A stretch of 64,000 nucleotides of DNA, from positions 1 through 64,000 of the forward strand of contig JALLLT010000005.1 in the NCBI GenBank assembly GCA_025266875.1. Reading direction: 5' to 3'. The translations under genes were made by a program, and so were the position numbers. Below the pieces are notes generated by a model. The model worked only from the letters and a program-made list of their open reading frames with translations. It was not told the origin of the DNA and ran no database searches. Source of the DNA: Fennellomyces sp. T-0311. Lineage: Eukaryota > Mucoromycota > Mucoromycetes > Mucorales > Lichtheimiaceae. This document shows positions 9,739-42,227 of this stretch, in pieces (positions within the stretch are counted from its first letter, which is position 1; every line of letters begins with the position of its first letter).

Positions 9739-10380
9739 CTATCTAAAAAATTTGGCAAAGGTTGCTTTGCTATAAGCTATGCTGTTAGGAGATCTATTTT
9801 TCTGCGAAAGTCTTCTCGCCTCAAGTATCACCAGAGCGGCTTGATCATTGATACCATTCTGTTTGGCAAAATCCTGGATACCAGCTATAAGGTTTCCTCT
9901 GCGTTGAACCCATTTCGTCTCCCCTTTGTCAAGAAGACCATACTTGTCCAACCGCCACTTGTAACCCCAATCACGTTCCAAATTGCCAAACGCAACAAAT
10001 TGAGGATGGATACCAACAAACCATTCCTTCCAGAGCATATCGAAGGTTATGGTATTCCTTGACATTCGAAGACCAACTGGTGGCCCTCTTGGTTCTGAGG
10101 CTCATGTGGATGTGTTTGACAGAGCAGGTTCAGAAGAAGGCATGGATATTGTGGATACTGCAGCAGTTCGTGGAACCGGAGGAAGATATGGCAGCGAAAC
10201 AATCGCCGAAGTCAGTAGTGGTGCTTCTGCTACCTGCTGTTGCTGTTGCTGCTGTTGTAGCTGGAGGTTTTGGCCTTGGCCTAAGTTGAGTGACACTGTC
10301 AATGGAATATGACCAGATGCAACGTTTGACCAGTGTCGTATCGGCCCGGATAATATGGGTGAAGTCGCAGGAGCCAATAA
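9739..10380 (-). pseudogene. Crypton C-terminal part: polyQ and GCR1_C-like domain
   Basis: One minus-strand frame encodes a glutamine tract (about 10235-10255) and then a domain beginning MSRNTITFDMLWKEW and ending with a tryptophan/arginine-rich segment. This matches the GCR1_C DNA-binding fold found in yeast Gcr1 and at the C-terminus of fungal Crypton tyrosine recombinases. A TGA at 10102-10104 interrupts the otherwise open frame. Because the recombinase part of a Crypton lies on the same strand at 18.6-20.5 kb, this is probably its missing C-terminus, separated by insertion of the exonuclease-transposase element; that link is inferred. Confidence 0.6.
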
Positions 10381-12935
10381 AAAATCGTTTTTAACTGACC
10401 AATGAGAATTGCGTTATCAACGACAGTTGGCTGAGACGGGAGAAAAACAAGCTCAGCTGCTGAGGCCTGGTAACAAAATTGCTTCTGCATAAGACGCGTC
10501 TACATCTAGTGTGTTCAATCTCAACAATGGGAAAACTAGTTCAGAAAAAGAAATCTAGACTCGGCCGCCCAACTGGGCAAATGAATAAAAAAGGTCATGG
10601 CGCCGGCAGACCGAAAAAGCATGTTAGGGGCCAAACAACTTTGTCGTTTGGACCTAAACCTTCGATCGCAGATGTCACCAATGGCGACGATCAGTCAGTC
10701 GCCAGCAGCAGCGACTCAGAAAACATTGAGGTGACAACAAAAACAGGAAATAATATCGAAAACGAAGATAATGAGGCCGACGACACTGTATCACTGGGCA
10801 ACTTGCTTTATAAGGACAATCGTTGGGCAGTAGAACAAGACACAGATCAAGTTCTGGAGAATTTCGAAGAGATGGACGAGTGGGAAGACGAACCTGATGA
10901 GAATTTGGATAGCGTCGAAGATTCTACTGAATCACATCCTACGGCTAGTATAATCGACAAGTATATAGGTGAATTGCGCACACGCATAATAGCCGATAAA
11001 TGCGTTGCCAAATACAAAGAAGGCACATTTTGGGCGCGTCACAAGGACCCATATTTCGCTTTGATCCACAATCTCGATCCATTACACGCATATCTTCCGC
11101 GCGTGTTTCTGTGGTTTCCTCATCATTTGCTAAACGATCTTGGCAAAGAATTGAAGTGTCCCAATTGTAAAGCCAGATTGAACTCAAAGGGTCCCACAGA
11201 AACGGTGCGTAGGGTTGTCGATCTCGACAGGTAATTAGCAGAAGAATTTTTACACATATAACTGGTACTAATATGTGGTTAAAGCTGCTTTTATATTTTG
11301 GGATGCCGTTACGAATGTACCACTAAAGGTTGCACATCTTCAAGTTATGTTAGTAACGACAAGCAAATCATCCACTCGTTACCAAGGTTCTTGCAGTCGC
11401 AGTACCCGGGATATATGACGCATCGTGCCGGCTTATCTAAAGCCGTTGGCGACCTCTTGCGACCCTGTATACAAAATTCTGTCGGACCGAAGCGCTTTCA
11501 AAGAATCATCCAGCAACTGCATTTGCTACGCCATTCTCGACTCGAGCTGCAGTATCTTCAGACTGCTTTTTTCCAAAAATCAAATCCTTTGGTTGACCAG
11601 ACGTCAGATTCTACACTACAATCGTTTTCACCTTTCGAGGATCAAATGGGCTATGCAGGATATGTGCCATCGCCACAATATTTTCGCTCTTTCTACACCA
11701 GTTACATGAACGAAATACGCCACTTGATCGACAAACAGATGCAAATTCTGGGCGGCAAGTATCTTAAAGGCGACCACTCCTTCAAAATCATCAAACGTAT
11801 CAGTAGAATCAATGGCACACCGTCATTTACAGCACTTTATACCGTCGTGAACGAGTATGAAGAAGTGCGTATCCAGTTCCTCGTGCCGACTAAGTCTTTG
11901 TCTTACCTGAAACATGCCTTCGAAGCTATGCGCGATGCGTTTACCTTATATGGTCATGAACAGCCATCCATTTTTTCACTGACAATGTCAAAGGAGACAA
12001 AGCATTTCTGGAGAGCATTTTCGTTTCGCTCAAAATCGATGTCGTTCCAGTCCAACGTCCAGAACCAGCAGATGAAGTAGAGAATGAGCTACCTCGTCTT
12101 GAAATACCGTCGAATGTGCAAATTCAGTGCCTCACTCAAAGTGAAGAAATCCAAGCTGCGGCATTGGATATTATGCACCGGACAAAAGTTGACACCGACG
12201 GCCAACCCACCCAGCAGCATTTCGTATGTGTTGGATTTGATTGCGAATGGCCGCTCCCTGAGGCAGGACGATCACGCCAAAAAATCGCTACGATACAAAT
12301 CGCATGTGATGACATTGTCTACGTATTCTGCGTTAGTCGTCTTAGAGAGCTACCTTCAGCCCTGAAAGATGTACTTTCATGCCGGTTTATAATCAAAATA
12401 GGCAAGAAAGTGGATACGGATCTTAAGTACATCAGCCAAGATTTCAACGTGGCGTGCAACAGTGGCTGTAACATTGCTACTTATTGCAAGAGACAACACA
12501 TTATCAATGACGCTAGAATGGGATTAGCTGACACATGTACCGTGGTTCTTGGTCATTATCTTCCAAAGGGCGATGTGCGAACAAGTGACTGGAGTGTCGC
12601 AACCTTGTCACAAGAGCAGGTTAACTATGCCGCTCTCGATGCATGGGCAGGGCTTCAAATCTACGAAGCATCCAAGGAATATGAATTTGTTGGTTTACCT
12701 GTTTTGCAATCATCAAAAGAAGGTAGACATTGTCTGAGAAAGGCAACGTCGAAATCATTCTTTTAACGACAAAAAATAGGCACACATGTGTCATACCATG
12801 TAGGATCAGTAACGCAAATTGCTGCTTACGGAGAGATTGCCATGCAACAGGATAAATGCAACGGATCAAAAGTGGGAAAGCACGAAACCATTGTCAAAGT
12901 CAAACAAGTTGTTATTCCGGGTACCGTAGATGCTA

Positions 12936-12945
12936 GAGGAAAACC
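12936..12945 (+). repeat. Left target-site duplication of nested MULE
   Basis: The 10-bp string GAGGAAAACC directly precedes the MULE and is repeated directly after it. Length fits MULE duplications (8-11 bp). Confidence 0.85.
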
Positions 12946-12984
12946 GAGTCTGTTATTTAACACCAAAAATTACGTCAGAACCCA
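12946..12984 (+). repeat. Left terminal inverted repeat of nested MULE
   Basis: Starts GAGTCTGTTATTTAACACC; the inner 26 bases are identical to the reverse complement of the right end, while the outermost bases match only partly. Confidence 0.8.
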
Positions 12985-13066
12985 CTTCGCGTCACAGAGG
13001 GAAAATTTTTTGGAAGTCCCATTGCCTGCATCTAGGCCTCTACGCGTTTATCGTGTTTTTACCCCC

Positions 13067-15434
13067 ATGGCCTCTGCATCTGAAGACCTCGGGTACCTCA
13101 TCCGCGTCTATCCCAACTACCCTTCGCTCAAATTCGAACATATATTCGATACTGTTGCGTTGTTTGACGCGTGGGTTGAGGAGAATCCTAAGCAGCATGG
13201 CACCTTCAACAATCATCGCAAATATCAACCACCCGAGGTTTCAGATGCATGCCGTACACCTGGTACCCGCGGTTCTAGTCGCCCCAAGTCCATCCTCAGA
13301 ACTATTGAATATTATTGTGACCATGGAAGAGTCACTCCCCCGCGCGATCTTAATGTGCCATACAAGAAGCGTCGAATGTCAAAGAGCTCCATCAAAGTTG
13401 GTTGTCCTGCGAGATATATTGCCAAGTACCTTTTGAATGGAAAAGTCAAAGTCGAATACCACTGGAAGCATGAAAATCACGATCCTACTGAGATCAGCGA
13501 TGCTGTCCGCTCTAAACTTCCTGAAAAAACTCTTGAATGGATTCGAAAGCATGTTGACAATCATTTGGATTGGGAAAATATACAAGAACAGTTGCGGCTG
13601 ACGGAGGAGCAGCTTACAGCAGTAAGTACAGTATAGATCATTTTATTCTATTTGATACTGACATATGGATCTAGCTTGAGGATGGCACTGGTCCTTTGCC
13701 AGAAGTGTTACGTATAAAGCACCACCATGTCAACAATATCATCGTGAACAAGCAGTCAAAGTTAGCAAGAAAGCATCCAATCGATAAAGACAGCGTAATC
13801 AACTGGTTTCATGAGCTGAGCACACAAGGATATCGTATATTGCAACATATAATGGATTCTACATTTGTTATATCGTGGGTATCACCACGCCAAGTCAAGG
13901 TACATTGAATTATAACGTCGAACTCGTAGGACTTACATATGTTTTAGTTACTTCAAGAAGCAAATGAGATATGCATTGATGCCACGCACAAGACTTGTAA
14001 ATCGATCATCAACTCCAAAGACGACGCTTATCTTTTTTCTATTGTTGCCAGAAACGCTATCACTGGTCGAGGGTATCCACTTGCGTTCATGATCACAGAC
14101 AAGGAAGACAGTGAAAACTTGCAAACATGGCTTCAGTGGATCCGTGACTCATTGCATTTTACACCAAAGACAGTTATGATTGACTGTAGCCCTGTTGAGA
14201 TAGCCAGCATTCATGCTGTTTATGGTGACCAAGTTCAAGTTCATTTGTGCCATTGGCATATAAAGCGTGCTTGGGAAAAAAACATTAAGTCAAAGGTAAT
14301 GTTTTAACCATTGTATGGTTGCTCATCATTGAACTAATGCATATATATTTAGATCAAAAGTACAATATCATCTGCAGATACAAAGATACAAAGAAGTCAG
14401 GCGCGGGCTGCTCTGGATGTATTGATGGAATGTAAAAGACCTGCAGAATTTGATTTGGCTTGGGATAACTTTGGCAAAACATGGCGAGACGAATATCTGC
14501 ATATCGATTTTTACAAATACATACTCGACTTTTGGATACCTAAACGAATCCTTTGGTGCAAGGCATGGAGACCGGTATGTTAATGTATTAATGTACTGTG
14601 ATGTTTTACTTACGTATTCATGCTTTAGACCGCAACCTTCCACACCAACAACTTGATTGAAAGCTGGCACAGTAAACTCAAACAAAGATATCTGCCATAT
14701 AATCGCAACCACCGTGTTGATCGAGTTATATATGTACTGTCACAACTAGCAGAGCGTGATTATCGTGCCGAAGTTGTTTGTGTGCTGGCTGGTATTAAAG
14801 ACACTGCAGCTACAAAAGATGCCGAGGACAGAAGAAAAAAAGCAAGCAAAATCTCGCCGTTCATTGCTGACCAGATGATAAAAATATACAACGACCATGT
14901 ATGTATATATATAAACTCATGGATACTGATGGCTTACGATAATATTCTTACCAATAGGTTACTTGTCGATCCTTTTCTGGTGATAATCTGTATGTTTTGA
15001 AGATCTCTGAAGTTATTGGTAATGGTGTTCGGATGCGTTGTACTTGTCAAGATTTTGAGATGCGTAAGGAGCCGTGTAAGCACATTTCCCTTGTCAATCT
15101 GCATACCACCCTCCCCATCATCACGAGGTGTCTGCGTCCAGCACTTCCCTTGTCCTCGGCACCCCCTCCGCCACCGCCCACAGCAACAACAACAACAGTA
15201 ACAGCGACACTTCTGGAAGAACAGCAACAACAGCAACAACAACAGCAACAGTATCGACATGACCTTCTGGTTGAGTTGGATCGTTCAAAAAGTCAAGTTG
15301 ATAACATCCTTTCAAAATCCAAGTCAAAAGCAACCACAGCCCAGTTAGAAAGCATGATAGTACTACAAAAAAGAATGTATAGTGAGCTAGAGAAAATAAT
15401 GAATCCAAGCGCGCGGCCCTCTCGGCAAAGTTAG
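13067..15434 (+). CDS. MULE transposase with SWIM zinc finger
   Basis: Exons: 13067-13621, 13675-13899, 13948-14295, 14353-14574, 14629-14898, 14958-15434, joined by 47-59-nt GT-AG introns and with no internal stop. The N-terminal part has a FLYWCH/WRKY-GCM1-like cysteine-histidine region (VGCPARY, HENHD). The catalytic core shows D in CIDATHKT, D in MIDCSPVEI, the MULE hallmark HLCHWHIKRAW, and a likely E in LIESWHSKL. A SWIM zinc finger (CTCQDF then PCKH) follows, then a proline/glutamine-rich tail with a CAA/CAG run near 15220-15250. The start is chosen at an ATG in good context just inside the left inverted repeat. It should catalyse its own element's cut-and-paste transposition. Confidence 0.88.
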
Positions 15435-15559
15435 GTGATGGAATAAAATATTTGTTTGAGAGCACTTAATTTTTTTAATGATGCATAGCACTTAGCCAAT
15501 TTTTCAGTGATGATTTTTCAAAGCAATAGCACTTGGTCTGATTTTTTGTGACTGGACAT

Positions 15560-15599
15560 TGGGTTCTGACGTAATTTTTGGTGTTGAATAGAGGAGGTC
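15560..15599 (-). repeat. Right terminal inverted repeat of nested MULE
   Basis: The reverse complement starts GACCTCCTCTATTCAACACC and then matches the left repeat through the ACGTCAGAACCCA block. Confidence 0.8.
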
Positions 15600-15609
15600 G
15601 AGGAAAACC
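15600..15609 (+). repeat. Right target-site duplication of nested MULE
   Basis: Second copy of GAGGAAAACC, followed by the resumed host reading frame (CCA CTT GGC TCC). Confidence 0.85.
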
Positions 15610-17726
15610 ACTTGGCTCCTTTGAGAGTGTGCCGTTTGAAACTATTTTAAGACTATGCGATCTGCGTACTAGTCGTGCTGTTGAAGATGCCATTCCAACT
15701 GAACTCGCTCAGAATGCCGATGTAGGAGCTATTACAGGTATTAATACTGTTTATCATTATGGGACTTTTGATTGCTTACTTCATTTCAAGACCAAGGGAC
15801 AGAGATTATGTCCATCGAATCACAGCAGCAGAATAATCAAGGCCCTGATACAGAGGCAGAAGATGCTGCATCCTGTAATGATACGAGCGATGGTAAATAA
15901 GGAATTCTAGATTCTACTACACTGGTGATAATTTAATAACCACTTAATAATCACGTAGATGAAGTTGAATACCACTCTGAGGAGCATCTGCAAGGCTTCC
16001 ACGGTCAAAATTTTGCTAATTCAGAAGTGGATCAGGAAAGTTATCAGCATGGAAAAAATATTTTCCGTGAGCTGCCAAGTCATACAGAGGCTAGAAATGT
16101 CATAAAATCCAGAATTTTGAAGGATTTTTTTCATCTTATGGATATGATTAAGGTACCTCGAAGACATGGACTTGCAAATGACTTTTCGAAGAAGCTACGC
16201 GATGCACTTTTCATTGTGGATGAAGCTGACAAAGCAAACGTCGAAGCAGTACTCCACAAGCAAGGAACATCATGGAAGAGCAAGCTTCTAAAGAAACCTG
16301 ATTGGATCTTTCGCCGCATTAAACGTGAGTACAAGAAATAATGCCAACACAAGTCGATAAGATGGACTTATGAATGAATATCTTTCTACATAGGTGTTGT
16401 TTCTCCCCCTGAAACTCTCTATCTAGATGTCCAGAACGTCTTTCAGAAATATGGACCAATGAAATGTGCAAAGACTGGTCGACCGCTGTTCGATAAGGAA
16501 GCTTGGAGACAGTCCAAAAATGTACTGAAAGCAATTCACGAAGGACAGGTGTCAGATCCTCCAGGATTTTCGTTCTACTATAAGATGGGTAAAGATAGTA
16601 ATGGACTGACCCTCTACCGCTGCTGCCGTGGAACAAATTCACTTGAAGGAGGCATTCACCAAAATGTTATTCGTAAATTTGGATCGTTTGGCGCAAGCCC
16701 AGAGCTCGCAGATGCCTTACTTGCAGACTATAGACTCCATCACAACATTGACGTAAGTATATCAATTAATAAGCAAGAGCATAGTTTCTGAGCGCATGGT
16801 ATTTGCATTAGGTTGGTTCTGTTAATAGATATGGCAAGGTGCATAAGGGACATTACGAACCGTGGCTTACTCAATCAACTGTTGACCTGAGGGCAATGCT
16901 CGAACTTCCATTCGCATATAATGCTCCTGGAATCCATCAACATGCCACATATCTTCAAAGCTCGGGTGAAACGTTTGGTATTGCTACGATACCCATTGCG
17001 CTTATGCAGCAATATGGAATTCGATCGATTGATGATGGCAATACTTCCAATAACTCAACTTCATCAGTAACAGAAGAAGACTTAGCGTCCCTGGTCATAT
17101 TGACTGGATCTACATTACAAAAACATGGCGCTCAGTACGAGTTTATCAGAAGAAAACAGAAAGCACGACATGCTATACTTCCTGTTCATACTGACGCTGA
17201 AAATCAGTTATTCGATACAATCATGCGAAGCAAATTTGCCCAGCATATCAATCAAGGAAAGCTGCCCAACTTCGATGAATTTTTAACGTACTGGAATCGA
17301 GATGACACCGTTGATGGAAAGCAGGTGTTCTACAAAACACCGGAGCATTTACGAAGCTACTACAACACTTGGAAAGACAATAATAACATTGCAGCTTCAA
17401 AGAATGCCAACCGCGACACCATTCACGACATTGAAGCCGAGTTAGACTCGCCCAGTAGAAAGCGCTCCATCGCCAATGCACAGCAACCTTCTCCGCTGAA
17501 GATTCCTCGCATCATCATTAATCATCGACCTTCCATCGTTACTAAGCCTGCAAGACAACAAACGCCAAGGGCGATTGTACCCACGCCACTTCCTCAGCAG
17601 ACATTGCAGCTACACCAAGTGACCCAACCGCCACTAACCACCAATCCACCTTTGTTCTCTTCGTCTTCGTTAGCATTATGTCAGAAATGCGAGTGGAGAG
17701 TAGGAGCACGACCCAATAGAAGATAG

Positions 17727-18570
17727 CTAGGAACAAGACGGAGATAAGAATACTACTCTACTAAAGGATAATACAACTACTAACCAATCAACAAGAATGC
17801 AAGAACCCACGAGAATGGATCAAGCAGCAAGACAGAACAAGACAAGAACAAGACTAGACTAGAAGGTGGGTGTTAGGTGCTTTCCACTACGCATTGACCA
17901 CATGGATGGTTACCAATGGCAAGACCGGACAAGGACAAGAACTAGGATAGAGATGGACCTTAGAGGTTGGTCAAGACAAGGATAAGGTAGATAGAATAAT
18001 GTGACGAGATAAACTGATGCCTTTATTGCTCTTATTCTTATCCGATATATATACCCAATGCTCGCAAGAAATAATAAATACAACGATGGAATTAATGACA
18101 ATGAAATACAATATCGGTAAGATGAGCAATAATGCGGGGTAATATTAATGAAGTAAGGGGAAGGGGGTGACAACGATGCATACTGTTACTATGTCCTAAT
18201 CGGTCATGACACATTACAACAGCAGCATTCTTCTACTGCTCAACAACGCTTTATCCAACCTTCTAATATTGCACCCAGACCAGAACTTTTTGCTCAACAA
18301 TCACAAAGTAGAACCTTTTTCAAAGATTTGCCACCACGGCGGAAGCCAAGTAGATGTAAAAAGTGCTTACAAACTACTTGCCGAGGTGGATCGAAGCGAA
18401 CCGATGAATGTCGACGTCAATATGGACCATAAAACGACCCATTTTTAGCATAAATATACAACTTTTAGATTTCTTTTATATAAAAATACAATCCATATCA
18501 AGCACACTTCTTTGTTTTATGATATATAGCTTATATTTAATATTCATCTCTTATGAGAAGCCTTGATTCA
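17727..18570. other. Purine-rich and AT-rich spacer without a gene
   Basis: Positions about 17740-17990 are rich in CAAGA-type words on the plus strand; 18400-18550 is AT-rich. The 3' end of the exonuclease-transposase element presumably lies here but shows no terminal repeat. Confidence 0.4.
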
Positions 18571-18572
18571 TT

Positions 18573-18614
18573 GCAAAATTGGCCCTCGCTACGCTTCGGG
18601 CCAATTTTGGAAAA
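18573..18614. repeat. Perfect palindrome around a GAAGCGTAGCGA core
   Basis: CAAAATTGGCCC and GGGCCAATTTTG arms flank TCGCTACGCTTC, giving a strong hairpin. The core is shared with the palindromic repeats of the Helitron-2 units. Confidence 0.65.
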
Positions 18615-18644
18615 ATTAAGTCACGTCAACTCCACCTATATTAC

Positions 18645-20479
18645 CCGCGCCGTCGTATCAGCTCGTTTGTGCTGTTGGACTGTTCGATCAGTCCAGTCAT
18701 CGCTTGGAGTGGAGTGAGGGTGGAAATAAGCGCCTGAACCTGCTGTTTAAGGGTGGCAAACTGAGCGTTGAACATCTGATTCTATACTTCGATATGCGAC
18801 GCAATTTGTTGATTTATATCCGCTAACTGTTGTTCGATGACTGGCACAGCTCGCTGCAGCAACAGTTCCATTGGTTCAACATCAGCGTCCAATGCACTAT
18901 TCAGAGCCCTACGTATATAGTGTATAAAGCTGTATTTAGTACATAGTCTACTTGGTGCATAATTGCAGGAAGAGTTACCTTTCAAATTCAAGATAGTCGT
19001 CATCTTGAAACAAGTCATCACCTCATAGATAATGGTTTGGGAACTTCTTCTTCAACACCACAGAATCTTGCAGGAACACAATTCGCAACTGCTCGAGCAG
19101 CTTCAAGAACATGTCAGCAGCACATGAACTCTCTTCAACACCGCCATCTGTATCAAGTCGCTCACACCAATGGTCAACGAATGGAAACACCATCTTGCGC
19201 AGTCTCTCGGGTGGCATCACAGTAGCTCGGACGAAATAGAACTGACCAGCTTCCCGCGGAAATCCTGCCAAGGTTCGTAAGAGCTCATGAGGGAGATTGG
19301 TCAAATAGCTTGTGGTGAGTGAACTAGACTTCCAATGACCAGCACGACAAATAGCCGCCTCGCTCGATCCTGCAATTTCTGCCATTCGCGCACCAGCACC
19401 TCGCATTGCATGGGTCTTGGCCTTAGAGTGAAGACTGATGGCCTTGAACGCATCTTTAATGACGGACAGATGCTGGTTGTAGCTTAATGCCTTGGTGGGA
19501 TCGGCGTCATTGGGCTTGATCAACTTGTAATGATACCAGTCAGAATTGCGGTTCAATCCAGGGAACTCCTCCTTGATATCGTGGTGGTAGCGACTGAACA
19601 AGTAGAAAGAAAGCATCATCTGTGGGCAAATGTCTACTTTCTTGTTGTGCAAGCATCCTGCAACCTCGACACGGCCGTTCTTGTTGGTTTTACCTTGTTT
19701 GAGGATCATCACCAGTGCGTGGCAGTCAGTAATTCCTTCGTACTCCAGATGGACTGACTATAGATCTGAAAACTCCAATCCATGGATACTTTCGCCACAA
19801 AGCAAGCCATAATGCTGTAGAAGGAATAACACACCATTACGTAGGTCAAGCTCACTATTCTGATTGAAGAAGTAGTTGACAATATCTTCCATTTCAGCGC
19901 GTGTTGCATAGCCGTCAGCAGCAGTAAGCGCTCCTCTGTCGTCGAAATTCTCGCGGCTGATTCTGTTGTCTTCCTTGCGCAACTAATCAAGTAGAGCTGT
20001 AACACGTTTTCCACAGGAACTTGGACGGGAAACATTGTTAGTCAAGCATTGCTCAGCCCAAGGATCGATTATAGAGCCAGCTTACATCTCCACAGTCGCT
20101 CGTTTCACGCGTTTGCCATGTGGAACTGCAACAGAAGCAGTAGCAAGCTCGGCAGTCTCAGGATCCACAGGGGTAGCAGTATTGGCAGTGGCGTTCAGTG
20201 ATGAGGAAGGGTGTTCCGAGTGGCTTATTAGACATAGTGCACATTAATATTCAAGTAAGAATTAACCTCGGTTTTCAAGAACAGATGCAGCTTGCTGTCG
20301 TTAGGAATATCGTTAACATCTTGCTCTAGGCACCATTTCTTGAATTCCTTCTGACGGTTCTTGTACGCCTTTTGTATGTTGATCGGGCGAGCTTCTTGTG
20401 AAAGTCGAAATGTTTCCAAGGCTGCTTTATCTCTGGCAAGAATGTATGCCTCGTTTCCTCCAACAGGTAAAGGTGCCAT
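18645..20479 (-). pseudogene. Crypton tyrosine recombinase, N-terminal and catalytic part
   Basis: Minus-strand exons begin at ATG 20479-20477. An RNQ/KEFKKW-type core-binding segment is followed by DDRGALTAADGYAT and LRNGVLFLLQHYGLL, then the C-terminal catalytic box THAMRG (HxxR), AGHW and TSYL (probable nucleophilic tyrosine). A coiled-coil tail follows to 18645. This is the layout of fungal Crypton YR proteins, which excise and integrate as circles. In-frame stops: TAG 19983, TAG 19758, TGA 19023, TAG 18782. The expected LLRGE arginine reads LLCGE, and the following SIR-type arginine reads SIH, so the catalytic site is damaged. An intron is clear at 18978-18911. The C-terminal DNA-binding domain is probably the piece at 9739-10380. 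Confidence 0.75.
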
Positions 20480-37393: not shown

Positions 37394-38892
37394 TTATGCT
37401 TCAATCATCATTGTTGTCTTGGCCATCGGAATGTGTGTGGGACGTGCACTGCGGACCCATCGATGCCACCATAACTGCTTGTACCAGCGGTTGTACATGT
37501 ACACCCACACGTCCGGGAGGTCATGTTGAACGCAATAGTCGTACATCTCACGCCCAGCATTCATACGTATGGTATCTGCAGACACATAGCCAACTAAACG
37601 CTATGTCAGCAATACTCATATGTACATAAGCCATACTTATGACGTACCACCTGGAAGAGGGATATGTGGATATAAATGGTAGTGCTTTCGGATCATGGAC
37701 AGGATTTGCTCTCTGTTATCCGCATTAGGACAAAGCTTCCCACTACGATCTTCTGTTGGTAGAAATTGGGTCGAAACAAAAGGGAACTCGCGACGTGCAG
37801 CGTAAATATTATAATGAGGATCTCTGATCTTATTCTCATTCAGTCGCAACTTAACGGCGTGATCAATATGCCATAGGCATAGGCGCAACAAATCACGACC
37901 AAAGACTCCTTCAATGGCGTTTATCTGGCCCTGATCCTTATCCGAAAACATAAACGTTGGTCGTAAACCGTTGTTATGCAGACACCGGAAAAACCTATGT
38001 ATAAATACCATTCTAGAAGGTCTCCTTACTGCATCTGTTACACGCGCATTATTGGCCCCACAAAGCATATATGCAATAGGGAAGCCACTCCCATTGAAAT
38101 TTGCTACGACACCAAAAAGCTCATACCCCATCCGATTCGTCTTGAATGTTGAGTCGACATGGAACTCAATCACTTGTGGGGAGCATGCAGCGTTAATAAC
38201 TCTGTAACAAATCCAACACCAGTAAATCCATTCATAGAGAGGTGGAAAATCTGTTTATTTCGTTCACCATAAATATATATACTATATACTGCATCTACCA
38301 TTAGTGTAGCATAGTGATCATCGCGTATACAGCTACCGTTATGCACACGTGGTTGTCTTTCACATACCTTACGAATTCCGTTTATTCCACTCTCGATGTG
38401 CATGATTGCAGAGGTGAGTTGATTGGCATCCAATTGATACCGATGCATGGTTGTTCTGGCCCACAGCGCATATATCTATCATAATGTCAACGTATCAACA
38501 TCACCACTTCCTATTTTACTTACCTGCGACTGGGTTACAGTTCCACTTGCACTCGGAAACTGGTGTACCATACGTCGGTACAGTCGTTGGGGTGCGTCAT
38601 CCTCGGCATTTTCCACAACAAACTGCCGGACATCTTGTGGCATTCCCACGCGAACATTATAAAGAGGTTCATCGACAGGATGAGCCATTTGATGCTTTAT
38701 CATCTGGTAAATAAACCCTCTTTCCGTGTCAATGAAACCGTATATCATCCCATGGCAGTTGTACGCTGCCATCCGATGATGCAGGCGAACGCGATCTGCA
38801 TCTGGTACTTGGCGCTGTACACTAGCATCCTGCCGACAGGCATACCGAAATGCAATCGCTGTTTGCAATCGCGTGTCACCAAGTGACCGAAA
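37394..38892 (-). pseudogene. MULE-1 transposase relic interrupted by FAR1-OTU MULE
   Basis: Minus-strand frames in order: FRYACRQDA ... YNCHGMIYGFIDTERG (N-terminal DNA-binding part), then, across a probable short intron ending near 38195, EFHVDSTFKTNRMGYELFGV with the first catalytic Asp. Next come FMFSDKDQGQINAI and LRLCLWHIDHAVKLRL (second Asp and C-W-H block), and a C-terminal WYKQLWWHRW ... IPMAKTTMMIE segment. The last segment runs into TAA and later stops. At 38892 the frame is cut by an inserted element; sequence after 42564 presumably continues it upstream. It differs clearly from the other two MULEs in the window. Confidence 0.7.
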
Positions 38893-39239: not shown

Positions 39240-42227
39240 TTATAAATGAGGAAAAGCAAATGAGTAATCTTGAAGTTGATGTCGTCGGCAGATAGAGGAG
39301 TGCCCTGGATATAAGCGCGGCCAAGTGATTTTCGCACGTGTGTTGTATTCAATATGATAATAATGGGCGCCGTACAGCTGTATAACTCCAGGGTGTGGTG
39401 CAGGTAAGTGAAACATTGGTACATAAAGAGACGAGCCTTCATTAGCATAAAATGCCAGTGCTACATTATACGTGTTTGCAGCAATAACTGAATCTTCAGG
39501 TATACAGAACCAGTTTCGAGGTGTCGTTGGTGAGTCACGGTTGTTCAGACGATCAGAGGCTCGTTTAAGATCGTTTTCACCAAAAAGAACTAAATACAGC
39601 GGTAGGCGAGAGTTAAGATGCACTAGCATCTCTTCCTTCACTTCCCTCCACTTATTCTCATCATGCTTCACCACCATGGCGATAGCGCGATAGCCACAAT
39701 TACCATCATCTTCCACATTGTTGATACTAATGATTGCATTGTGTGGTGCAATAGGATCCAGAATATGGCGATACTTTGCAAGTGTGCTTTCGACGGCTGG
39801 CTTTGAAGATGGTACCGGTGTAGAAACTGACTCTCCATTACGCAGGGTTGACGAGCTGTTACCTTTCCTAGATAAAATGCATAAGTAGTTATAATCTAAG
39901 AGAAAGAAGAGAAATAGGTATCATATTGTGCTAAATACTTATAAGCGTTCATACCAGAGATTAAGAGCTTCCTTGCCAAACAAGGTTCTTGCTTTTTTCG
40001 TAGATTCTTTATCGAGAATCTCGGCAAGTTTCATATCACGCTTGGTGCTACGACCTTTTGTTATCACCTTCCCTTTAGGAGGCTTTAACGCTTTTAAGTC
40101 GACGAAGGAATCGCTTGTAATCGCTTGAAGTTTCGTCAGGAGTGTCTGTTGCTGTTGCTGATCTGTATAAATATACTGAAGCTGCTCTATGCGATACAGT
40201 TCAGTAGCAATCTGATCGTGAACTGTTTCAGGTATATAATCTGCCGCGGTTGCAAGGATAGAGCCATCATCAGTGTTAACCGTGCCATCATCTGAACATG
40301 TTTTCATGTGTGGATCAACTTCAATGAAAAGGTAACATCAGTAATATTACTTCCAAACGGGAGTGATACTTTCTTCTTACATGTTTCAGATGGGAAAAAG
40401 TGCCAACGTCGCGGAATTGCTGTTAACGGGATTTCACCAGAAGGCGGAAGCATGTGGCAACAAGGTATATCGAATTGATGCTTGATAGCACACTGACAGT
40501 GTATGGTCTGCATCGTGTTTACTCGTGCGATTTCCTGTTTGATTTTATCAAACGCAAAACGGGAAATATTGCCACGAAGAGCTTTAAGCCGCTGTGCATC
40601 TTTCTCGGCAATATGTGAATCAAATCCGAATGTTTCGCTGTCGATCTGTTTGCGAAGTAGATCATTCTAATGGCCACAAAAGGAAGTGTTAACTGTAATG
40701 TTAGTATATGTACCCTCATTTACATGGTATTGTGAAAACCTAATTACACAATTTTAGCTGGAAGGTACCTTAATGTTATAGAACTGATTAAGTGTGCTGA
40801 AAGCGAGATAGAAACTATTAGACGCCTTTAGATTCTTTTTCAGCTCTGCGTGTGCACCTTCGACACGATTCGTGGTGGTGTTGCCCAGATGAGGGAGTCT
40901 TGCAATATATTTTCCAACCCACCGTTCCTTCATCTTGAGTTTCCTACACATTACATTAAAAGTTTTAATTTTAACCAGTATCCATAGGTACTCTTTTTAA
41001 GCACTACTTCTCCAAATAGGATGTGGCCTTTTGAGGGAGGCGACATTTTTTCAAGGCTTGCTCAAAGAGTTGGACACCTTCAGCATATGTTTGATCATTG
41101 GCGATCACTGTAAGCCCAGTGTTTTCATCTGTCATCTTTGTGATCATCATCTTATTGATTCCATGCATGCAAGTGTCGAAATCGGTTTCTGCATCGAAGA
41201 GCTTTCGTAGGTTGACTTCGAAGTTTCGGCATAAGTGAATCTGGCACAGAATCTTGTGAGAGGTGGGGAAGATCGTATCTAAAGCGTTCATTACTGCAGT
41301 TTCACTGTCTGTAACGAACACTTTTGGTGGTTGGATGTTTTTTGCTGCTGGCCAGACGACAGATTCAAGGCACTGAACAAACCACTTATACGTGTCGTTG
41401 TCTTCTCGTAATATCCAACCTCCAGCGATGAAAAAGGTCTTCAATTTATGTTTACCGACATTTGAAGTGCCCGTAACATTGATAAATGGCAGCTTATGTT
41501 TGTTTGTCTTGTAAGTTGCGTCAATACAAACAACATCCGAAAGTTGTCGCGCCATTGTAATTGCGTCCTTGTGAGCAAAAAAGATCGAATGCAGAGTGGA
41601 CTCTCCGTTCATATCATGGTGCGCGATAAATCGATGTTCATAGTTGTTTCCTTCAAGATCATTGATAAGATTGAACATCTGGTGATCCGGATCGTTGTTG
41701 AAAACAATTTGTCGCAAGTTAGAGATATCTTTTGGAGTCGATCCTGCACCACGTTGACGCAACGAATCACTAATAACTGCATTTGATGCATGTGCCTCAA
41801 TAAGAGTCAAAGCATGCTGGCGGTTTTCATGATTTAGGCGTCGGTTCATCGGATACGAGAATTCATCCAAGGCTACACGGTGGTTGTGCTCGTTGTTGAT
41901 GTTCACGATCTTCCATTCACCTCCAGATTGGATTCGTACCGTAACTCGAAATGGGCAATCAATGCGTTGCGAATCTCGCTTTCTTGCTGCTCCTGGTGCA
42001 CTATTTTTCGAGTTGTCGGTTTTATCCACCTGAATACTCGAAGATCTATGGCGTGGAAGACCCGAGTGTCTGCATATCATGACAAGCCTATCCATCTCAC
42101 TTTTCCTCGTAGATGCGGAAAACTTGTTGGCTTTTGCATATTCTCGGATCGCAATACGAGCATTCTCCATGGTAGCGAAGCGATCGCCAATGTTAATGGA
42201 AGCGCTGTTTGATGATTCGGCCGACAT
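39240..42227 (-). CDS. FAR1-domain MULE transposase fused to OTU cysteine protease
   Basis: Exons on the minus strand: 42227-41010, 40943-40769, 40666-40381, 40318-39955, 39867-39240; introns of 62-102 nt, about 890 residues, no stop. An N-terminal FAR1/WRKY-GCM1 zinc domain (ICRHSG, DCPFRV, NEHNHRV) is followed by the MULE core: D in VVCIDATYKTN, D in FVTDSETAVMN, block CQIHLCRNF, and E in TTNRVEGAH. A SWIM finger (CQCAIKHQ, PCCH) follows, then a glutamine-rich linker. The C-terminal OTU-like domain has the nucleophile block EDDGNCGYRAI and a candidate histidine in AHYYHIEY. OTU domains cleave ubiquitin-type linkages; in MULEs the role is unknown. The start is the ATG of MSAESSNS; an upstream ATG at 42278 is possible. 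Confidence 0.88.

What the first reader, a model, noticed from the sequence alone, without database searches (positions are those of the whole stretch)
10527..17726. 3'-5' exonuclease domain embedded inside a DDE-like transposase core
Reading through the lesions, one protein has D (KGDHSFKI), D (FFTDNVKGD), then a complete DEDDy exonuclease (GFDCEW, KKVDTDL, YAALDAW), then a TN-x-x-EG-x-H block like that holding the catalytic Glu in MULE transposases (compare TTNRVEGAH in the FAR1-MULE of this same window). If right, the exonuclease is an insertion domain between the second D and the E, as hAT and some other transposases carry different insertion domains. A transposase that carries its own proofreading-like nuclease could trim ends or target DNA. 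The exonuclease and the N-terminal zinc region occur together in fungal proteins of unknown role; the proposed DDE frame around them is the new suggestion.
Basis: partly seen in the sequence, partly recalled or inferred. Interest (0 to 1): 0.85.

Follow-up and report, generated by a model that had tools for sequence, protein, structure and literature searches.

The report
Fungal jumping gene with built-in nuclease
The stretch is a broken copy of a fungal jumping gene whose mobility enzyme has a DNA-trimming enzyme built into its middle; that design was already published for Dada elements in 2013, but the ends and landing sites of these copies differ from the published ones.

Summary
Window 10343-18651 is a DNA transposon, most likely in Fennellomyces sp. 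T-0311 (Mucorales), with inverted ends (GGC...) and an 8-bp duplication, GTCGTATC. It sits in a Crypton-like element whose uninterrupted copies occur elsewhere in the genome, and it is broken by a MULE and a solo-LTR-like insert. Of 16 copies with both ends located, 13 have perfect 8-bp duplications.

In a 53-row alignment the proposed D, D and E are nearly invariant (49/50, 52/52, 45/46), as is a DxxH motif. A WRN-like DEDDy exonuclease lies between the second D and DxxH. This architecture was published in 2013 for Dada transposons of Laccaria and Ectocarpus (PMC3706591).

What differs: inverted repeats, 8-bp duplications and no small-RNA-gene target seen; Dada is described with 6-7 bp duplications and small-RNA-gene targets, without terminal inverted repeats in its U6 and U1 families. 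Several relatives lost exonuclease residues but keep DDE, so the exonuclease looks accessory.

No fold model could be made (predictor unavailable on five tries) and no Dada sequence was at hand; the RNase H fold and kinship to Dada rest on motifs, spacing and weak profile similarity.

The parts
10335..10342 (.). left target-site duplication GTCGTATC
   Evidence: uninterrupted paralogous sites
10343..18651 (+). whole transposon (8309 bp including two later insertions; sister copy L027 is 5108 bp)
   Evidence: boundaries from comparison with L027, TIRs and TSD
10343..10370 (+). 5' terminal inverted repeat GGCCCGGATAATATGGGTG...
10527..11234 (+). exon 1 (presumed): basic start, acidic stretch, first half of DUF6729 with first cysteine pair (CPNCK at 11157)
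11235..11282 (+). presumed intron (interruption at the same place in other copies)
11283..12945 (+). exon 2 (presumed) up to the nested MULE: second half of DUF6729, D1, D2, exonuclease; the reading frame changes once between D1 and D2 in this copy
11772..11774 (+). first proposed catalytic D (KGDHSF)
   Evidence: D in 49 of 50 rows
11981..11983 (+). second proposed catalytic D (FTDN)
   Evidence: D in 52 of 52 rows
12221..12667 (+). DEDDy 3'-5' exonuclease domain (PF01612); best PDB sequence matches of the family profile are WRN exonucleases
12936..12945 (.). left 10-bp duplication GAGGAAAACC of the nested MULE (right copy 15600-15609)
12946..15599 (+). FAR1-MULE transposon nested in the element; later insertion, not part of the transposase
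15600..16341 (+). rest of the linker module after the exonuclease and the DxxH segment
16123..16134 (+). DxxH motif (DFFH in LKDFFH)
   Evidence: D 48 of 49, H 47 of 48 rows
16378..16791 (+). block with the proposed catalytic E
16645..16647 (+). proposed catalytic E (GTNSLEGG)
   Evidence: E in 45 of 46 rows
16812..17678 (+). C-terminal region (GHYEPW) up to the LTR-like insertion
17679..18211 (.). solo-LTR-like insertion (TG...CA, 5-bp duplication CATTA); later insertion
18212..18432 (+). C-terminal cysteine-rich tail (CKKCLQTTCRGGSKRTDEC)
18624..18651 (-). 3' terminal inverted repeat GGCGCGGGTAATATAGGTGG...
18652..18659 (.). right target-site duplication GTCGTATC

Best explanation
This is a dead copy of an autonomous cut-and-paste DNA transposon of the Dada-like kind. 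[quoted passage not shown] Shown: insertion with 8-bp duplications and GGC... inverted ends, many copies, conserved D/D/DxxH/E, conserved exonuclease residues in most relatives. Inferred: the zinc parts bind the ends; the DDE site cuts the ends and joins them to target DNA with an 8-bp stagger; the exonuclease works on 3' ends exposed during the reaction, most likely those left at the donor site, because the ends of inserted copies are exact. The exonuclease is accessory: several relatives keep DDE but have lost exonuclease residues.
For: Mobility: perfect 8-bp TSD in 13 of 16 copies with both ends located. Among the 11 whose ends were found without using the duplication, 9 are perfect, 1 has 7 of 8 and 1 has none. 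Uninterrupted paralogous sites: 6 for the window copy (93-98% over 179 of 180 bases; three read) and 40 matches across the junction for L025 flanks (87-99%). Conservation: D1 49/50, D2 52/52, DxxH 48/49 and 47/48, E 45/46. [quoted passage not shown] D-D spacing is 70 here and 68 in Dada-U6_DR. N-terminal cysteines at C101, C106, C146, C153 in P0016 against C389, C394, C429, C432 in Dada-U6_DR. Similarity to MULE in the D1-D2 segment; one relative, P0014, reaches PF10551 at E=0.019, below its cut-off. Core and exonuclease evolve together: distances over 48 rows correlate at r=0.80, 300 permutations reach at most 0.35.
Against: No fold model. No significant sequence match of the non-exonuclease parts to any known transposase in Pfam, NCBIfam or PDB. 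The MULE profile match is modest: one shuffle of 200 scored higher (36.0). TSD length, presence of TIRs and lack of a seen RNA-gene target differ from published Dada. No Dada sequence was available for direct comparison. One copy (C172) with both ends has no duplication (2 of 8 letters agree).
Confidence: 0.88

Rival explanations
1. The exonuclease is a catalytically dispensable or purely structural insertion domain (DNA grip or spacer), as other transposases use helical insertion domains; its nuclease activity plays no part in transposition.
For: P0002 keeps DDE and DxxH with all five exonuclease residues changed in an open frame 41% identical to L017; P0024/P0025 have DKDCD and P0036/P0047 GEDYD; the fewest changes of exonuclease state on the core tree are 6, of which P0013 and P0030 have other damaged motifs and P0007 only a gap. 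In this genome L023 and L027 carry E to K. A gene model of Apophysomyces, P0017, lacks the exonuclease and linker altogether, but its DxxH has lost the D and its E block ends early.
Against: All four DEDD residues are kept in 40 of 48 rows that have both parts; all five DEDDy residues are read in 17 of 21 copies examined here (two of the other four are simply not covered at the last residue).
Confidence: 0.25
2. A host gene family (exonuclease with an unknown zinc domain) that is carried around by other transposons; the DDE-like residues are not catalytic.
For: The non-exonuclease parts have no significant match to known transposases; the genome is full of MULEs (150 scored matches).
Against: The gene lies between its own TIRs in the nine complete copies read; TIRs are GGC... 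with 8-bp TSD, while the nested MULE has different ends and a 10-bp duplication; acidic residues are nearly invariant across phyla.
Confidence: 0.05
3. A separate transposon superfamily that acquired a similar exonuclease independently of Dada.
For: 8-bp TSD, TIRs and no RNA-gene target seen all differ from published Dada.
Against: Same insertion site relative to D2 and DxxH, similar D-D spacing, same kind of N-terminal zinc motif; Dada was reported in a basidiomycete, and this family is common in basidiomycetes. The TSD difference is softened by the paper itself: Dada-U1 insertions appear to have 8-bp duplications, and the authors propose 6 bp but cannot rule out 8.
Confidence: 0.12

Closest known systems
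Dada transposons with exonuclease (Dada of Laccaria bicolor and Ectocarpus siliculosus), PMC3706591
   Same: DDE triad, DxxH motif, DEDDy exonuclease between second D and DxxH, N-terminal four-cysteine zinc motif, C-terminal zinc motif, introns, kilobase-long elements (complete Dada 4666-10979 bp; main text read, its supplements not)
   Different: The paper gives TSD 6-7 bp for Dada (8 bp not ruled out for Dada-U1), no terminal inverted repeats in the U6 and U1 families, and small-RNA-gene targets for all families with definable termini. Here TIRs are clear, TSD is 8 bp and no RNA gene is seen at insertion sites. The Laccaria and Ectocarpus families bear no target name there, so their ends may not have been defined (inference).
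KolobokD (PMC9587614, abstract, section list and section 11 read)
   Same: A DDE transposon lineage that encodes a DnaQ-type exonuclease, proposed to degrade DNA intermediates from 3' ends
   Different: Kolobok superfamily of mollusks, arthropods and cnidarians, DEDDh type similar to TREX/ERI1 rather than WRN-like DEDDy; position relative to the transposase not stated in the section read
ISL2EU / PHIS transposons (PMC4482050, one passage read)
   Same: Transposon that supplies its own exonuclease; GG ends
   Different: YqaJ exonuclease in a second ORF, not inserted in the transposase
MULE / MuDR transposases
   Same: D1-D2 profile aligns in register; TN-x-x-E block looks alike
   Different: Pfam MULE reached by 1 of 33 members and below its cut-off; DxxH instead of CxxH; 8-bp rather than the 10-bp duplication of the MULE nested here
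Zisupton / KDZ (8-bp TSD, PMC12730594 passages)
   Same: 8-bp TSD, found in fungi
   Different: No KDZ match among the Pfam hits of 33 members at E up to 10

Membership tests
Dada superfamily | DDE catalytic triad | tested here: met
   conserved in 49/50, 52/52, 45/46 rows; catalysis itself not tested
Dada superfamily | DxxH motif after the second D | tested here: met
   D 48/49, H 47/48
Dada superfamily | N-terminal CCCC zinc motif | tested here: met
   four columns, C in 30/32, 31/31, 40/40, 32/40 rows
Dada superfamily | C-terminal CCHC zinc motif | tested here: inconclusive
   four C columns (18/19, 18/20, 16/20, 22/23), i.e. CCCC rather than CCHC; more than half of the 53 rows lack the tail
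Dada superfamily | exonuclease, where present, between second D and DxxH | tested here: met
Dada superfamily | 6-7 bp target-site duplication | tested here: not met
   perfect 8 bp in 13 of 16 copies; the paper does not rule out 8 bp for Dada-U1
Dada superfamily | no terminal inverted repeats (stated for U6 and U1 families) | tested here: not met
   GGC... inverted ends at both sides
Dada superfamily | insertion into small RNA genes | tested here: not met
   No tRNA at 9 joined empty sites, none in 9 loci; no Rfam match at gathering score in 8 loci or the window; window copy sits in a Crypton-like element. Joined sites were not scanned with Rfam, so a split snRNA gene could be missed; TSD sequences differ from copy to copy.
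Dada superfamily | sequence homology of the transposase to named Dada proteins | not testable with these tools
   no Dada sequence at hand; no hit of the three protein searches is named Dada
MULE/MuDR | match to the MULE domain over its cut-off | tested here: not met
   best E=0.019, 15.8 bits against 27.6
KDZ (Kyakuja-Dileera-Zisupton) | match to a KDZ transposase profile | tested here: not met
   none
Any DDE transposase | RNase H fold with the three acidic residues together | not testable with these tools
   structure predictor unavailable

The most novel reading that the evidence does not exclude
The exonuclease-bearing lineage (fungi, and by listing the alga Cymbomonas) is a distinct branch at the root of or beside Dada: it has true inverted ends, an 8-bp stagger and no target preference, and RNA-gene targeting arose only in the exonuclease-free branch. 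Its transposase nests one RNase H-like nuclease inside another, and the inner nuclease resects donor-site 3' ends so that excised sites are repaired from the sister copy, raising copy number. Loss of the inner active site in several relatives would then mark a switch in how the donor site is repaired.
Probability: 0.25. Interest if true: 0.6.

Novelty: new variant of a known kind. Interest (0 to 1): 0.42.

Why it matters
It gives defined ends and target-site duplications for exonuclease-carrying Dada-like elements, which the main text of the 2013 description does not give, and it suggests that DUF6729, a Pfam domain of unknown function, is the N-terminal zinc part of these transposases. Nearly identical copies with long open frames, and natural relatives with altered exonuclease residues, make the suggested but, as far as I saw, untested role of the built-in nuclease directly testable.

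Tried and rejected
Host-gene reading: rejected because of TSDs, TIRs and empty sites. Membership in MULE or KDZ: profiles not met. Exonuclease trimming the element's own ends: not seen; the ends of the 16 copies all begin GGC, but several ends were found with patterns that ask for it, so this is not an unbiased count. Viral relatives: one scan of viral contigs, 27 pattern hits, none confirmed. dN/dS by domain: only one pair was in a usable range (the output does not name it; probably L016/L024, the only pair near 80% identity), 0.146 for the D1-D2 segment and 0.197 for the exonuclease, then the script stopped with an error, so this is anecdotal. PDB searches with the two non-exonuclease parts gave nothing better than E=0.48 and 0.25. 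Exonuclease-free relatives: the third protein search listed 9 proteins, all of the same family by score; P0078 (Cymbomonas) lacks most of the exonuclease in its gene model while its near twin P0079 has it, so gene-model error is likely. hhalign of the post-exonuclease segment against MULE (score 15.1) is uninformative, as the MULE profile lacks its E block. A search of 5.39 million papers for DUF6729 found none.
Full report
What was checked. The finding proposes that one broken protein between 10527 and 17726 is a DDE transposase with a 3'-5' exonuclease inserted between the second D and the E. All named motifs are at the stated places. The exonuclease matches PF01612, and the family profile's best PDB sequence matches are WRN exonucleases; the N-terminal zinc region matches DUF6729.

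Where it is. The window is contig C128:1-64000 of a 45.6-Mb genome. One relative found by protein search, named Fennellomyces sp. T-0311, lies on a contig of 772,445 bases, the exact length of C90 here, so the genome is most likely that fungus (Mucorales). This is an inference from contig length.

It is a transposon. PF01612 has 58 matches in the genome. Twenty were fetched, chosen for long open frames, and all 20 carry motifs of this family; at least two of the others (L001, L002) were not examined and may be host exonucleases. The E block alone has 86 matches, in part pieces of one copy. Comparing near-identical copies gave sharp edges, and the edges are inverted repeats starting GGC. Patterns built from the ends hit the genome 8 times against 0 for the reversed control, 11 against 0 and 56 against 3. 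Sixteen copies had both ends located. Thirteen have a perfect 8-bp duplication: window, L027, L012, L020, L022, L024, L025, L026, L014, C174, C44, C105 and C1 (end at 787086). C127 has 7 of 8, L013 6 of 8 and C172 none (2 of 8). In L024, L025, L026 and L014 one end was placed with the help of the duplication, and in L013 by comparison with L014. Of the 11 others, 9 are perfect. For C44, C105, C127, C172, C174 and C1 only the ends were read, not all of the DNA between them. A seventeenth copy, C111, had only one end found.

Empty sites. The joined flanks of the window copy match six uninterrupted places at 93-98% over 179 of 180 bases; the other two matches are the window's own flanks. The three places read show the target once, with one or two letters changed in the 8-mer. 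The joined flanks of L025 give 40 matches, all across the junction, 87-99% identical. The window copy is inserted in a Crypton-like element on the other strand: NDC10_II at 19023-19757 (E=1.7e-43) and GCR1_C at 9739-10101 (E=1.9e-11) lie on either side; that these domains mark Cryptons is recalled knowledge. It was later hit by a MULE (12946-15599, 10-bp duplication) and a solo-LTR-like insert (17679-18211, TG...CA, 5-bp duplication). Hence nested layers of mobile DNA.

The protein. Other copies: L017 carries D, D, exonuclease, DxxH and E in one open frame of 790 aa. Protein searches listed 51, 29 and 9 proteins, overlapping. Alignment A2 has 53 rows: L017 and 52 of the 72 proteins of the first two searches; 20, mostly shorter or partial, were left out, among them the exonuclease-free P0017. 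The counts of rows with the residue among rows with any letter are: D1 49/50, D2 52/52, a further D five residues on 52/52, DxxH 48/49 and 47/48, E 45/46, and a following H 46/46. The exonuclease residues are D 48/52, E 49/52, D 50/52, Y 47/52, D 51/52.

The RNase H question. hhalign of the D1-D2 segment against MULEs of this genome aligned both D's in register (probability 42%, score 32.3); 1 of 200 block shuffles scored higher (36.0), and the reversed profile gave 10.3. The MULE profile made here lacks the E block, so the E could not be tested this way. P0014 reaches PF10551 at E=0.019 over the D1-D2 region, the only one of 33 members. This is weak support. The decisive fold model could not be made.

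What is known. Kojima & Jurka 2013 (PMC3706591; passages, parts 1-3 of 4 read, the rest being references; [quoted passage not shown] The present protein has that same architecture; D-D spacing is 70 against 68 in Dada-U6_DR. Differences: the paper gives 6-7 bp TSDs, no terminal inverted repeats in the U6 and U1 families, and RNA-gene targets for all families with definable termini. Here there are inverted repeats and 8-bp TSDs, and no RNA genes were found. Against a sharp contrast, the paper says that Dada-U1 insertions appear to have 8-bp duplications and that 8 bp cannot be ruled out. By the rule for filing, I call it Dada-like, not a proven Dada. I saw no paper that reports ends or TSDs for exonuclease-bearing Dada, in the searches and the passages read; Repbase itself could not be searched. 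A 2022 paper on fish Dada (PMC8869645, passages) does not mention an exonuclease.

How it probably works. The 8-bp duplication shows a staggered joining reaction, as a DDE enzyme makes. The exonuclease has probably been part of the enzyme for long, since core and exonuclease distances correlate (r=0.80; at most 0.35 in 300 permutations; 48 rows). Yet its active site is not always kept: P0002 has an open frame with DDE and DxxH but none of the five exonuclease residues, and P0024/P0025 and P0036/P0047 have lost some. In this genome 17 of 21 copies examined show all five, two show E to K, and two are not covered at the last residue. Since the ends of inserted copies are exact, trimming of the element's own 3' ends leaves no trace; donor-site ends are the likelier substrate. 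This last step is inference.

Verdict. Observation confirmed; interpretation right in outline but known; the 8-bp TSD, inverted ends and lack of a seen RNA-gene target make it a variant of a known kind.

Noticed in passing
window 9739-10101 (-) and 19023-19757 (-): Two parts of a Crypton-like element (GCR1_C and NDC10_II domains) on either side of the transposon; uninterrupted copies of the insertion site exist at six places in the genome.
   Followed up: partly
window 12946-15599: FAR1-MULE nested in the exonuclease transposon with a 10-bp duplication GAGGAAAACC and ends sharing ...AACACCAAAAATTACGTCAGAACCC.
   Followed up: partly
window 17679-18211: 533-bp solo-LTR-like insertion, TGTCA...TGACA with 5-bp duplication CATTA.
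   Followed up: partly
window 37865-38161 and 41223-41534 (-): Two more MULE transposase matches, among 150 scored in the genome.
   Followed up: no
L009:6767-8292: A DDE transposase-like gene of pogo/Tc1 appearance (from the look of the frames, no family search) nested in another copy of this transposon.
   Followed up: no
Pfam DUF6729 (PF20499), matched by 25 of 33 family members at E up to 10: A Pfam domain of unknown function that here is the N-terminal zinc region of a transposase; it may be usable as a marker for Dada-like elements.
   Followed up: partly
linker module after the exonuclease, L017 residues about 430-560: Conserved module between exonuclease and DxxH with no significant Pfam or PDB match by sequence.
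   Followed up: partly
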